Source of the DNA: an uncultured bacterium | GTDB lineage: Bacteria; Cyanobacteriota; Vampirovibrionia; Gastranaerophilales; Gastranaerophilaceae | DNA length: 37,617 nucleotides | Reading direction: 5' to 3' | Assembly: GCA_902803165.1 (NCBI GenBank) | Contig: CADCOS010000114.1 | Coordinates: 1 to 37,617, forward strand | Part shown: one piece after another, positions 4,540-36,895 of the stretch | Position numbering within the stretch: position 1 is the stretch's first letter | Layout of the letters: every line of letters starts with the position of its first letter | The notes under the pieces: model-generated | What the model saw: the letters and a program-made list of their open reading frames with translations, nothing else | Databases searched by the model: none | What the model was told of the DNA's origin: nothing | Position numbers and translations under genes: made by a program

Positions 4540-5127
4540 CTAAATTTTAATATGATTTTTTAAAATCAAGAATAAATTGTCAGGTGATTTTTCAAAACCG
4601 TGATCTAAATAAAACTTTTTTGAATTAGCGGTAGGTATCAGTACAATAGGCTTATCTCTAAATATACTTATAATGGATTGCAATAACGATATTCCAATCT
4701 TTTTATAATTTCTAATGCGTGATAAAAACATTGAATCAGGTTTTGTTTGAAGATAGTCTAAAATAAAAACATCCGATTCATCAAATCTGTTTTCCGGTAC
4801 ATGGGAAACTTCCGCAAGTCCTAAAACATTGTTAGAATCAATTTTTTCAAAGCTGTCAAGTTGTGTTGTTAAGCCGAAAAATCTGCTTTGATTGTAATTA
4901 TCGTATTTACTGCTAACTTCTTTGAATTCATCAGCCATATCATTCGCAAAAGTCCTAGTGTTTCCGATTCTTTCCCAATCTTTTGCTACAGACTTTATGG
5001 TATTTCTGTCATCAGACGATTTGGTATCAAATTCTACAATTGATACTCTGGAATCAGAATATAAATCAAAAATTACTCTTTGTGGAACAATCCCGCTATT
5101 TATATAATTAGCTTTAAAACTTAACAA
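4540..5127 (-). CDS. GNAT-like acetyltransferase with N-terminal F-motif
   Basis: A 195-residue protein whose C-terminal half looks like a GNAT acyltransferase. NNVLGLAEV and DVFILDYLQTKP resemble the central strands, RNYKKIGISLLQSI sits where the CoA-binding loop and helix would be, and SKKFYLDHGFEKS resembles the terminal strand-helix motif common in GNATs. The substrate is unknown. The start is a TTG with a good AAGGAG six bases upstream. The N-terminus (MLSFKANYIN) carries the SFKA form of the motif shared with neighbouring genes at 5153-5509 and 5582-6082. It follows the glycine-zipper gene by 25 bases and probably shares its transcript. Confidence 0.6.
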   Translation of the reverse strand: MLSFKANYINSGIVPQRVIFDLYSDSRVSIVEFDTKSSDDRNTIKSVAKDWERIGNTRTFANDMADEFKEVSSKYDNYNQSRFFGLTTQLDSFEKIDSNNVLGLAEVSHVPENRFDESDVFILDYLQTKPDSMFLSRIRNYKKIGISLLQSIISIFRDKPIVLIPTANSKKFYLDHGFEKSPDNLFLILKNHIKI

Positions 5128-5152
5128 TGCACACTCCTTTATAAAATAATTT

Positions 5153-5509
5153 TTATGGCCAACTTCTTATATCAAAATAAGTATCGTCAAAATCGTCATA
5201 GTCGCTGTTGTCGGAACAATTGCTGCGGCTTTCTTCAATCATGTTTCCTCCCATAGAGCCGGCTGCGGTTCCTGCCATGACAGCAATAAAAGGTGCGGCT
5301 GCACCGCCTGTCAAAGCGGTAATAGCGGTTCCGATGCCATATCCTATAGCAGCACCAGTAGCTCCGCCGAATATACCGCCAAACGGTATTTTGGCACCGA
5401 ATGATATCAGATGTGAGTTATTTGATTGTATCACCTTTTTGCCTTGTTTTTTTGTTGTTGCTACATTTTTGTGAGTGTAAGGATATGCTTTTATTGCGGC
5501 TATTTTCAT
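5153..5509 (-). CDS. Small glycine-zipper protein with N-terminal F-motif
   Basis: A 118-residue protein of unknown function. After a basic N-terminus comes SHLISFGAK (F-motif at residues 36-39), then a Gly/Ala-rich segment with GxxxG spacing (IFGGATGAAIGYGIGTA and AAPFIAVMAGTAAGSMGG) resembling glycine-zipper membrane segments, then an acidic tail rich in Asp, Ser and aromatic residues. The ATG at 5509 is chosen over an in-frame start at 5539 because GGAGAG lies just before it. Glycine zippers of this kind pack in membranes or oligomers; whether this one is inserted in a membrane is an inference. It sits between two other F-motif genes on the same strand. Confidence 0.65.
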   Translation of the reverse strand: MKIAAIKAYPYTHKNVATTKKQGKKVIQSNNSHLISFGAKIPFGGIFGGATGAAIGYGIGTAITALTGGAAAPFIAVMAGTAAGSMGGNMIEESRSNCSDNSDYDDFDDTYFDIRSWP

Positions 5510-5581
5510 AAACAACTCTCCATTTTGATGCTTGTGCAAATTTTACACCTTGTGAAAAGTTAGGTCAATACATCATTTGTA

Positions 5582-6082
5582 CTAAAATAATGCGTGATTT
5601 TTGTTATATAATTCAATTTCTTCCGCAGCTTTTTTTATAGCGGGGCTGATTTCAATATCAGATTCTTTTTCACCGCTTCTCAGAAACTTTTTCCAATTAG
5701 GATTTTTGTCTATAATTCTTGCTATAATTTCAGCAATACTTATTTGTTTATTATTAATTCCATATTTGTTAACGTCTGAATCCGATATCCCCGGTACAAT
5801 TTTAAAAATATGTCTTTTTTCATGTTCAAAAATTTCAATATCAGAAAAATGCTTGCTGTTTGCAAGAATTTTAGAAATTTTCAAAATCATATTTCTTTCA
5901 GGAGGAATTACTTCAACATTATTTGAAGAAATTAATACATCACTTTTAACAAAAGTATTTCGGCCAATCATTATTTTTGCTTGTAATGCCGGAATTGTTT
6001 TTGCTAACCTTTCTGCTCCGCCGACTCCAAGTTTAATATCTCCGAACGACACATTTGCATTTGAAATTGATTGTATATTCAT
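5582..6082 (-). CDS. Unknown protein with N-terminal F-motif
   Basis: A 166-residue protein that I do not recognise. The N-terminus MNIQSISNANVSFGDIKLG has an Asn/Ser-rich stretch followed by VSFGD (residues 11-15), the clearest example of the motif shared by several genes here. The rest looks soluble, alpha/beta, with a charged C-terminus and no catalytic signature. One stretch (HFSDIEIFEHEKRHIFKI) is rich in His and Glu but does not form a standard metal site. A TATAAT box about 30 bases upstream and a GGGGAT before the ATG support the start. It begins a probable three-gene run ending at 4540. Confidence 0.6.
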   Translation of the reverse strand: MNIQSISNANVSFGDIKLGVGGAERLAKTIPALQAKIMIGRNTFVKSDVLISSNNVEVIPPERNMILKISKILANSKHFSDIEIFEHEKRHIFKIVPGISDSDVNKYGINNKQISIAEIIARIIDKNPNWKKFLRSGEKESDIEISPAIKKAAEEIELYNKNHALF

Positions 6083-27276: not shown

Positions 27277-27756
27277 TTAATTACTATCATTCACCTTCTC
27301 ATTAATATATTCTAAAAGCGCTTTTTCGTATTCCATTTTATTGTCTTCCCCACCGTCACCTATATTTGTCGGAGCTGTTTTGTTTTGCTTTAAATATTTG
27401 TCTGCCATTTCTTTTAGTGAATTGATGACATTATCTATAAAGCTGCCGACCTTTATATCTACATCTATTGCGTCAATGCCCTTTGAAATATTCGTTTTAA
27501 CATCTTTACACTCTTTGATAAATATATCTATATAATTTCTTATATCGAACCCATTTTCAAATGCTTCCTGTATGGCGCTATCGTTACGTAATTCTTCATA
27601 AAAAGCCGCTATCTGTTCAGCTGAAGATACAGTTCCGTCTTGATTCTTATCAAAAATGCTGTATTTTTTATCCTCAACTTCGTTAGAAGTTGTTTGGGGT
27701 TTGTTTGGGTTTTGTTCATTCGGTTCCGGTGTTGCTCCGACTCCTGATATAGCCAT
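27277..27756 (-). CDS. Small EF-hand calcium-binding protein
   Basis: A 159-residue acidic protein of unknown role with one canonical EF-hand loop, DKNQDGTVSSAE (about residues 36-47), having Asp at 1 and 5, Asn at 3, Gly at 6 and Glu at 12. The N-terminus is Pro/Asn-rich and low complexity (GVGATPEPNEQNPNKPQTT); the C-terminus is helical with an acidic GDGGEDN stretch. There is no signal peptide, membrane helix or second EF-hand. AAAGGAG precedes the ATG. Calcium binding is likely from the loop alone; the partner is unknown. Confidence 0.75.
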   Translation of the reverse strand: MAISGVGATPEPNEQNPNKPQTTSNEVEDKKYSIFDKNQDGTVSSAEQIAAFYEELRNDSAIQEAFENGFDIRNYIDIFIKECKDVKTNISKGIDAIDVDIKVGSFIDNVINSLKEMADKYLKQNKTAPTNIGDGGEDNKMEYEKALLEYINEKVNDSN

Positions 27757-31143: not shown

Positions 31144-31875
31144 ATGCAAGTATTATCTGTTAACAATAATTATACAAATAATTTAAGATTGAAAGAAAAT
31201 ATTCCGTCATTCGGACATGGTGATTCTCTCAAAAATAGTGGTTATACCTCAAAACAGAAAGCTGTTGTCGCTTCAACTACAATTGTAGGGGTTGCGGCGA
31301 GTCTTGCACTTATGGCAAAGTGTGCAAAATATTCTTTAAAGCCTTCCAAAATGTTTAAAAATATAAAAAATTCATACCTTTCTAAAACTGATTATAAAGC
31401 AAAAGAAATTGTAGCAATGGGCGCCGGTTCATGTATAGGCGGTCTTGCCGGAGGATATATTGTAGATAAAAATAAAGACAACAGAAAATCAAAACTAAGA
31501 GAAACCATTATGCAAATAGGAAATGTTTCGTTTCCGATTCTAACTGTTGATGTTGTTGTTGATAAGATATTTAAAAATAAATCAAAAGGATTTAAGGCTA
31601 TAGCCGGTCTTGGAGGTGTTTTTGCAGGTGTTGCCATTTCGAATATCGTAATGAATAAATTAAACAACCTTATATTCAATGAAAAACGTGGTGAAGGACG
31701 TAAAATGAAAATTACGGACTTTTCAATGCACTTTGATGATGTGGTAGCAGCTGCAAACTATATAGCAAAAGGTGATTTTGTTCACAAAGTAGGCAGAATT
31801 ATACCTGCATTTCTTGTTATTCCGGGACTTGAAGTCGGAAATAAAACTGCTGAGAAAAATAGTGTTACTTTATAA
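31144..31875 (+). CDS. Unknown membrane protein with N-terminal F-motif
   Basis: A 243-residue protein, not recognised. The N-terminus is Asn-rich (MQVLSVNNNYTNNLRLKENI) and is followed by PSFGHG (residues 21-26), the shared motif. Hydrophobic segments near AVVASTTIVGVAASLALMA (about 40-58), GAGSCIGGLAGGYIV (about 93-107) and AIAGLGGVFAGVAISNIVM are likely membrane helices with GxxxG packing. The loops are basic. GGAAGG precedes the ATG. Its end overlaps the convergent DUF212 gene by 11 bases. Confidence 0.6.
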   Translation: MQVLSVNNNYTNNLRLKENIPSFGHGDSLKNSGYTSKQKAVVASTTIVGVAASLALMAKCAKYSLKPSKMFKNIKNSYLSKTDYKAKEIVAMGAGSCIGGLAGGYIVDKNKDNRKSKLRETIMQIGNVSFPILTVDVVVDKIFKNKSKGFKAIAGLGGVFAGVAISNIVMNKLNNLIFNEKRGEGRKMKITDFSMHFDDVVAAANYIAKGDFVHKVGRIIPAFLVIPGLEVGNKTAEKNSVTL

Positions 31876-35605: not shown

Positions 35606-36895
35606 ATGAATATATCAGTTTATCCTATTTTTTTCAGCCAACAATTGAGTACAATTCAAAATAAAGAAAATGCAAAAGCTAATACCGTTAATTTTAGAGC
35701 ATTTCCCAGTGAAGTTTTAAAACCTATGAAAAATGTTTATGAAGCCGGTACAATGTCTTTGGATGAACTTTTTTCCAAATTGCCTCCCGGGTACCAAGAT
35801 AGAATTATTTCTATAGCTAACTCGTTTAAAGGTTATGGTGTAGACAGAAATAAAATTTTTCAAAAGGTCTTAAAGCAGCCAAGTATGATTACCTCGACAG
35901 CGGAATTAATAGTGGACAGAGTAAAAGCTCATGCATTTGTTGAAAGACATAAATCAGGCAGTTCAAAAGAAGAACTTATTCCGTTTGTAATCGAAAATAA
36001 AAATTTGGGCAAATCTGTAGATAGCATATTTGCTGCACTTTTGTTGTCAAAAGCTTTTAAATCAACCGGAAGACCTGATTGCTTTGTAGATGAAAGCGGT
36101 ATTATAAATACTTTTAAACGGTATTACAGAAAAAATCCGGATGTTAAATTTGATAAAATTGAAATATTAAATGATGATGAGGCGGATGCTTTTATTAATT
36201 TTACAAAGAAATTATCAGTCGAAATGTCGGGAAAAGATAATTTATTTGATATAAGTGTAAAAAAAGATGTTATACCGTCTAATATGCCGAAGCCTTTGAG
36301 TGAAGAAAAAGCTGCAAATATAAAAGATATTCTTTCTCATTTAAAATATAATTACTTTGAGAATTTTGATAACGCTGAATTTTTGAAATTGTATAAAACA
36401 TTACCGGACAGGTATCATAAAAATTTTTCGGATTTACTTCTTCTTTTGAGATCGAATAAGGAAAAACTTTCTTTTTATGATTTAATGCCTCTATTTTTAA
36501 GAAATAATTTCTTTTTTAACATGAAGGCACCAGAAGCATTGAATTTGATTAGGGTTAAATTATTTATTGATAAAAATAACGGTAAGTCTGATACAAAAAT
36601 TAAAGATATTATAGAGTCAGGATTTTTCTCTGCTATACACCAAACAAATCTTTATTCGCACTTTCTTGCATCAAAAATGTTTCCTGAAAAAACAAAAATG
36701 CCATGGTATATGAAAAAAGGCGCGAATGCGGACCTTACTGACGACATAAAGACATTTTTAAAAGAAAATCCTACGGTAAGATATGAATTTGATATAGAAA
36801 ATGAAGAACGAGCGGATTCTTTTTATAATTATGCGAAAGGGTTGTCAAGAAGTTCTATAGGAACAAATGTTTTTAGAATAACTATTAAAGAGTAA
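35606..36895 (+). CDS. Unknown F-motif protein with an internal duplication
   Basis: A 429-residue protein, not recognised. The N-terminus has TVNFRAFPS (residues 27-35), the NFRA form of the shared motif. The rest is two diverged copies of one unit of about 170 residues (about 51-220 and 257-428). The best-matching blocks are residues 168-219 and 381-428, where KRYYRKNPDVKFD aligns with KTFLKENPTVRYEFD and DDEADAFINFTKKLS with EERADSFYNYAKGLS. The units start LPPGYQDR and LPDRYHKN. No signal peptide, membrane helix or catalytic motif is seen. AAAAGGAA precedes the ATG, and a strong terminator follows. Confidence 0.65.
   Translation: MNISVYPIFFSQQLSTIQNKENAKANTVNFRAFPSEVLKPMKNVYEAGTMSLDELFSKLPPGYQDRIISIANSFKGYGVDRNKIFQKVLKQPSMITSTAELIVDRVKAHAFVERHKSGSSKEELIPFVIENKNLGKSVDSIFAALLLSKAFKSTGRPDCFVDESGIINTFKRYYRKNPDVKFDKIEILNDDEADAFINFTKKLSVEMSGKDNLFDISVKKDVIPSNMPKPLSEEKAANIKDILSHLKYNYFENFDNAEFLKLYKTLPDRYHKNFSDLLLLLRSNKEKLSFYDLMPLFLRNNFFFNMKAPEALNLIRVKLFIDKNNGKSDTKIKDIIESGFFSAIHQTNLYSHFLASKMFPEKTKMPWYMKKGANADLTDDIKTFLKENPTVRYEFDIENEERADSFYNYAKGLSRSSIGTNVFRITIKE

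What the first reader, a model, noticed from the sequence alone, without database searches (positions are those of the whole stretch)
4540..6082. Shared N-terminal [SN]-F-[GKR] motif on unrelated small proteins
Five proteins of different make-up start with a polar, often Asn/Ser/Lys-rich stretch followed by a short F-centred motif: VSFGD (5582-6082), ISFGAK (5153-5509), LSFKAN (4540-5127), PSFGHG (31144-31875) and NFRAF (35606-36895). Three are consecutive. The bodies differ (GNAT-like, glycine zipper, membrane, soluble), so homology does not explain the match. A common sorting, secretion or cleavage tag is a natural reading. I know of no described signal of this form in bacteria.
Basis: partly seen in the sequence, partly recalled or inferred. 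Interest (0 to 1): 0.8.

Follow-up and report, generated by a model that had tools for sequence, protein, structure and literature searches.

The report
Shared two-part start-tag on unrelated proteins
Dozens of otherwise unrelated proteins in a group of gut-dwelling relatives of cyanobacteria begin with the same short two-part label, which looks like an undescribed address tag that sends them to a common place or machine.

Summary
Behind it is a real, more specific signal in two parts. Box 1 is M-x-[IV]-x-x-[IV] at the extreme N-terminus. A polar, acid-poor linker of about 1-30 residues follows. Box 2 is [STN]-F-[KNG]-[GAS]. A profile trained on this genome finds 23 of 1068 N-termini in seven other Gastranaerophilales genomes, against 2.1 expected (P=1.6e-16), and 3 of 473 in other families of the class. 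A set of 49 tagged proteins falls into 41 unrelated families, mostly orphans. Among 65 orthologues of one family the linker length varies freely while box 1 (65/65) and box 2 (51/65) persist; the same family has an invariant internal copy of box 2. A phosphoglucomutase paralogue carries the tag as an added 60-residue extension. The N-termini have type III secretion-like composition, and 116 of 117 genomes of the order keep a second flagellar-type export gate even without a flagellar copy. I propose an export or docking tag, most likely for that gate. The tag is well supported; its reader is not shown.

The parts
5582..6082 (-). Tagged orphan protein, 166 aa (MNIQSISNANVSFGD...)
   Evidence: score 15.6; only one other, weak match among 117 genomes of the order; no Pfam match
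6038..6082 (-). Tag, residues 1-15: box 1 MNIQSI, box 2 SFGD
5153..5509 (-). Tagged 118-aa glycine-zipper-like protein
   Evidence: score 11.9; no Pfam match
5393..5509 (-). Tag, residues 1-39: box 1 MKIAAI, long polar linker, box 2 SFGA
4540..5127 (-). GNAT-like protein, 195 aa, TTG start with AAAGGAG ribosome-binding site; box 2 only
   Evidence: three paralogues in the same genome keep [ST]F[KN][AS]; no Pfam match of its own
5107..5127 (-). Box 2 form at the very N-terminus (MLSFKAN)
31144..31875 (+). Tagged membrane protein, 243 aa, three predicted hydrophobic segments
   Evidence: (score 15.2)
31144..31218 (+). Tag, residues 1-25: box 1 MQVLSV, box 2 SFGH
35606..36895 (+). Tagged soluble protein, 429 aa; weakest of the scoring four
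   Evidence: (score 8.0)
35606..35701 (+). Tag, residues 1-32: MNISVY, polar linker, NFRA

Best explanation
Layer 1 (shown by sequence statistics): the proteins carry a bipartite N-terminal targeting tag. Box 1 is M-[KNQR]-[IV]-x-x-[IV]. A disordered, Asn/Ser/Thr/Gln/Pro-rich, acid-poor linker of free length follows. Box 2 is [PIV]-[STN]-F-[KNG]-[GAS]. The tag has been acquired or kept by many unrelated, mostly lineage-specific proteins in Gastranaerophilales. Layer 2 (inferred): the tag is an export signal read in the unfolded state by the second, flagellar-type type III secretion gate (FlhA2, FlhB2, FliP2, FliQ2, FliR2 with FliE-, FliF- and FliH-like partners). This gate is kept across the order, including genera in which no flagellar copy was found. 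In this reading box 1 would engage the gate, box 2 would dock on a gate or sorting protein, and the flexible linker spans the two. I put about 0.85 on layer 1 and about 0.4 on layer 2; the confidence given is for both together.
For: Out-of-sample enrichment: 23 of 1068 N-termini against 2.1 expected from internal-Met windows and 2.4 (maximum 7) from shuffled N-termini; 3 of 473 in other families of the class. 49 tagged proteins form 41 body families. Purifying selection on the boxes: in 65 orthologues of one family, an aliphatic residue at position 3 in 65/65 and F-x-[G-like] in 51/65, with 1-22 residues between; in the fliR2-adjacent family M[KE]I and NF[NKS]GL are kept while the residues between vary. 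Modular addition: a phosphoglucomutase paralogue with its active-site motifs present carries a ~60-residue tagged extension, while homologues in other genomes of the order start directly at the domain and the own genome has two further untagged copies. T3S-like composition outside the defining box: no D/E in residues 8-12 in 89% against 53% (P=3e-6); S/N/T/Q/P rich (P=2e-8); L, E, D, C, W depleted, resembling published T3S signals (PMC3338616, PMC2669295). Machine: FlhA in 117/117 and FliP in 116/117 genomes of the order, the second copy present also where no flagellar copy was found; FlhB in 59/60. A tagged gene lies next to fliR2 in all 11 genomes of one genus that have it. Only about 5 of 49 tagged proteins have a Pfam domain at E<0.01, among them GNATs and a dual-specificity phosphatase; 48 untagged controls matched 105 Pfam families.
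Against: Other families of the class that have FHIPEP/FlhA homologues (f9, f12, f14) show essentially no tag, so the tag follows the order, not the machine. One family has an invariant internal box 2, which an N-terminal export signal does not need. Box 2 usually lies closer to box 1 than the 19-30 residues the Salmonella FlgD signal requires. One tagged protein is a metabolic enzyme. Genomic linkage to the gate rests on one ancestral locus. No secretion data exist.
Confidence: 0.4

Rival explanations
1. Docking motif for an intracellular partner. Box 2 is a short linear motif in disordered segments that binds a shared scaffold or receptor (membrane structure, pole, compartment); box 1 helps at the N-terminus. 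Tagged proteins are gathered inside the cell, not exported.
For: An internal [LIV][ST]F[KTN]G in a hypervariable loop of family A has F invariant in 44/44 and G in at least 90%. AlphaFold2 leaves both copies disordered (residues 1-13 and 165-179). A metabolic enzyme with its active-site motifs present is tagged. The tag is specific to the order, not to the gate.
Against: No candidate partner found. Box 2 is concentrated at residues 10-20 of proteins and is at background elsewhere. Box 1 at the extreme N-terminus is the usual place for a targeting signal.
Confidence: 0.3
2. Proteolytic processing site. A dedicated protease recognises [ST]F-x-G, removes the N-terminal segment, and in family A also cuts between the two helical halves.
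For: A conserved short motif in hypervariable linkers at the N-terminus and between two predicted helical halves looks like a pro-region or polyprotein site.
Against: The 14 of 65 orthologues without linker and box 2 keep MKV or MNV. No conserved residues beyond the motif that would mark a cut, no candidate protease found, and the GNAT paralogues have box 2 at residues 3-6, leaving almost nothing to remove.
Confidence: 0.12
3. No tag: chance, composition, or shared ancestry of start regions in an AT-rich genome.
For: Four GNAT-like proteins are paralogues. AT-rich starts favour K, N and I codons. About 9 of 47 profile hits look like false positives.
Against: Internal-Met and shuffled controls on the same proteins give 2.1-2.4 against 23 observed. 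41 body families. Boxes are kept while the linker diverges in orthologues.
Confidence: 0.08

Closest known systems
N-terminal signals of type III secreted effectors (e.g. Pseudomonas syringae rules, PMC3338616; EffectiveT3, PMC2669295)
   Same: Disordered N-terminus, aliphatic residue at position 3 or 4, few acidic residues in the first 12, polar S/T/P-rich composition, on fast-evolving unrelated proteins
   Different: Known T3S signals have no fixed sequence; here two conserved boxes are seen. Serine over 10% is met by only 21% (asparagine dominates). Dependence on a T3SS is untested
Two-part export signal of early flagellar subunits such as FlgD (PMC8983047)
   Same: Small hydrophobic residues at the extreme N-terminus, polar flexible spacer, then a Phe-centred docking motif
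   Different: The FlgD docking motif is F-x-x-x-hydrophobic at least 19-30 residues downstream; here it is F-x-[GAS], usually at residues 8-23
Non-flagellar proteins exported by the flagellar gate of Campylobacter jejuni (PMC2764114)
   Same: A flagellar-type gate exporting non-flagellar cargo through an N-terminal signal
   Different: No shared sequence motif is known to me for that cargo; secretion is shown there, only inferred here
PEXEL (Plasmodium) and RxLR (oomycete) host-targeting motifs (from general knowledge)
   Same: Short shared N-terminal motif on many unrelated, fast-evolving proteins
   Different: Those follow a Sec signal peptide in eukaryotes; none here, and the sequences are unrelated

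Membership tests
Type III secretion substrate | Genome encodes a type III export gate | tested here: met
   FlhA 117/117, FliP 116/117, FlhB 59/60 genomes of the order; own genome has two sets
Type III secretion substrate | Disordered, polar, acid-poor N-terminus with no Sec signal | tested here: met
   Composition tests outside box 1; low pLDDT of residues 1-13 in one family
Type III secretion substrate | Signal distribution follows presence of the gate | tested here: not met
   Class families with FlhA homologues lack the tag
Type III secretion substrate | Genes enriched near gate genes | tested here: inconclusive
   Tagged gene beside fliR2 in one genus and a second near it; none at the FlhA2 loci read
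Type III secretion substrate | Secretion depends on the gate | not testable with these tools
   Needs an experiment
FlgD-type early flagellar export signal | Hydrophobic N-terminal residues plus F-x-x-x-hydrophobic at least 19 residues further on | tested here: not met
   F lies at residue 22 or later in 7 of 38; position +4 is mixed (spacing rule)
Sec, Tat or lipoprotein signal peptide | n-region, hydrophobic h-region, cleavage box (or RR / lipobox) | tested here: not met
   Tagged N-termini are polar throughout; judged from sequence, no signal-peptide predictor was run

The most novel reading that the evidence does not exclude
A bacterial sorting code of its own kind: a two-box N-terminal tag whose second box also works inside disordered loops, read by an undescribed order-specific receptor, used to send dozens of unrelated proteins of gut Gastranaerophilales to a common destination.
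Probability: 0.35. Interest if true: 0.85.

Novelty: new variant of a known kind. Interest (0 to 1): 0.68.

Why it matters
Gastranaerophilales are common gut bacteria, and the genomes examined here are draft or metagenome assemblies with many orphan proteins. A sequence tag that groups orphans by destination would give a first handle on what they do. It would also be a type III-type signal with an explicit sequence pattern, which makes the old question of how such signals are recognised directly testable.

Tried and rejected
A DNA pattern for the tag over whole genomes: too noisy to separate from its control outside the own family. Flagellar FlgD-type signal: spacing and position +4 do not fit. 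Membrane proteins as the common property: 17% of tagged against 18% of all proteins have a hydrophobic segment. A shared promoter: TAGCAAA upstream in 8 of 47 against 43 of 1342, picked from many words, so only a lead. Fold of family A: all-helical AlphaFold2 model, no PDB match below E=0.06. AlphaFold2 of 4540-5127 from one sequence: pLDDT 38, not usable. Internal duplication of family A: hhalign P=0.11, not shown. The inner-membrane hat structure related to the flagellar gate (PMC9380563) was read and found not informative here.

Full report
WHAT WAS CLAIMED. Five proteins in the window share an N-terminal F-centred motif on unrelated bodies. All five N-termini are there. The genome is a 1.78-Mb draft.

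IS IT MORE THAN CHANCE? I took about 1.6 Mb from eight genomes of the order (own plus seven) and about 0.6 Mb from seven genomes of other families of the class, called genes with a codon-usage script, and tested N-termini. The motif as written, [SN]F[GKR] in residues 1-50, occurs in 83 of 1480 N-termini. Shuffled N-termini give 72.0 (maximum 95) and internal-Met windows 62.6, so it is not significant. The lists nevertheless showed a second element at the very start: MNISPI, MQVLPI, MKISNI, MRIQSI, MQILPI, MKVNSI. A two-box profile was built: residues 2-7, plus six residues around an F at positions 8-48. Trained on 13 own-genome N-termini only and applied to the seven other genomes of the order, it finds 23 of 1068, against 2.1 expected from internal-Met windows of the same proteins (P=1.6e-16) and 2.4 (maximum 7) from shuffled N-termini; 3 of 473 in the other families. 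An iterated profile on all eight genomes gives 47 of 1480 against 3 expected, and 0 of 473 outgroup; about nine of the 47 look false by name (RimM, rod or hook proteins, glycosyltransferases and others). Some own-genome contigs were picked because they held a related pattern, which is why the out-of-sample number is the one to trust.

ANATOMY. In 38 curated profile hits: position 3 is I (28) or V (9); position 6 is I in 26; the residue before F is S (17), T (8) or N (7); after F come K (16), G (7) or N (7), then G (16), A (5) or S (4). F lies at residue 8 to 39, median about 14. The linker is rich in N, Q, T, P, S and poor in E, D, L, C, W, both against other proteins and against the bodies of the same proteins. 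The bodies are mostly orphans: 49 tagged proteins form 41 families by body similarity. Pfam matches at E<0.01 fall on about five of them: GNATs, a dual-specificity phosphatase with an intact HC-x5-R, a phosphoglucomutase. A random set of 48 untagged proteins matched 105 Pfam families. Tagged genes tend to lie side by side (4 adjacent pairs against 1.2, P=0.03), as in the window.

IS THE TAG UNDER SELECTION? Three tests say yes. (1) Family A, an all-helical protein with 63 orthologues in the genome collection: among 65 sequences position 3 is aliphatic in all, F-x-[G-like] follows within residue 28 in 51, and 1 to 22 residues separate them. Fourteen sequences, with two kinds of N-terminus, have lost box 2. 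(2) A 128-aa family beside fliR2 in genus g2 keeps M[KE]I and NF[NKS]GL at 37-62% overall identity while the residues between change. (3) A phosphoglucomutase paralogue (L019:8492-10198) has a ~60-residue tagged extension, also seen in a second genome (L167). Homologues in other genomes of the order start at the domain (MTKNITFGTDGWRAI...), and the own genome has two more untagged copies.

A COMPLICATION. Family A has a second, internal [LIV][ST]F[KTN]G in a loop of very variable length: F is invariant in 44 of 44 sequences and G in at least 90%. AlphaFold2 (mean pLDDT 80) leaves both copies disordered, each before a helical half. Box 2 can therefore be kept inside a protein. Over all proteins of the order, however, box 2 peaks at residues 10-20 (about 1.0 per 1000 positions against about 0.3) and is not enriched in the bodies of untagged proteins (79 against 75 shuffled).

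A CANDIDATE READER. Every genome of the order searched has FlhA and all but one FliP, in two kinds. One (about 870 and 270 bits) is present in some genera only. The other (about 720 and 230 bits) is nearly universal, also where the first is missing. FlhB is in 59 of 60. The second set comes with FliE-, FliF-, FliH-, FliO- and FliMN-like proteins. Published work saw the incomplete sets as flagella being lost (PMC3787301, PMC4040986). A near-universal complete gate suggests instead that it does something. Together with the type III-like N-terminal composition and the precedent of C. jejuni (PMC2764114), an export signal is my first choice. Against it: families of the class with FlhA homologues do not have the tag; linkage to gate genes is a single locus; the internal copy. 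Hence 0.4, with an intracellular docking motif at 0.3 and a processing site at 0.12.

LIMITS. Gene starts are my own calls. The survey covers a part of each genome. Families f2 to f6 of the order were hardly sampled. The profile misses box-2-only forms such as 4540-5127. No experiment bears on location.

Noticed in passing
L021:12106-18142, L122, L081:8209-12181, L085:6159-12137: A second flagellar-type export gate (FlhA2, FlhB2, FliP2Q2R2 with FliE-, FliF-, FliH-, FliO-, FliMN-like proteins) is nearly universal in Gastranaerophilales, including genera without the flagellar copy.
   Followed up: partly
e.g. G001:C6:10760-11788, G018:C3:317649-318671: Many genomes of the own family also carry ~500-aa ORFs matching only the C-terminal cytoplasmic half of FlhA (profile positions about 310-655).
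   Followed up: no
upstream of tagged genes, e.g. window 35606 at about -51: TAGCAAA lies 35-70 nt upstream of 8 of 47 tagged genes against 43 of 1342 others; possible shared promoter or operator element, not corrected for the number of words tried.
   Followed up: partly
window 4540-5127; L005:5016-5540; L005:11007-11552; L007:3381-3989: Small family of GNAT-like paralogues within one genome, 25-32% identical, each with an [ST]F[KN][AS] start.
   Followed up: partly
L013:3810-4814 and orthologues L156-L218: All-helical protein in Gastranaerophilales with no Pfam or PDB match and two disordered motif copies, possibly an old internal duplication.
   Followed up: partly
L017:7196-9130: 644-aa tagged protein with two stretches similar to the product of L020:3026-3394 (extended): an internal repeat of an orphan domain.
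   Followed up: no
window 27277-27756 and L023:139-1884 (G001): MAISGV / MSISGV starts on proteins without a clear box 2; the window one looks EF-hand-like (DKNQDGTVSSAE), the other lies about 13 kb from the FliE2-FlhA2 locus.
   Followed up: no
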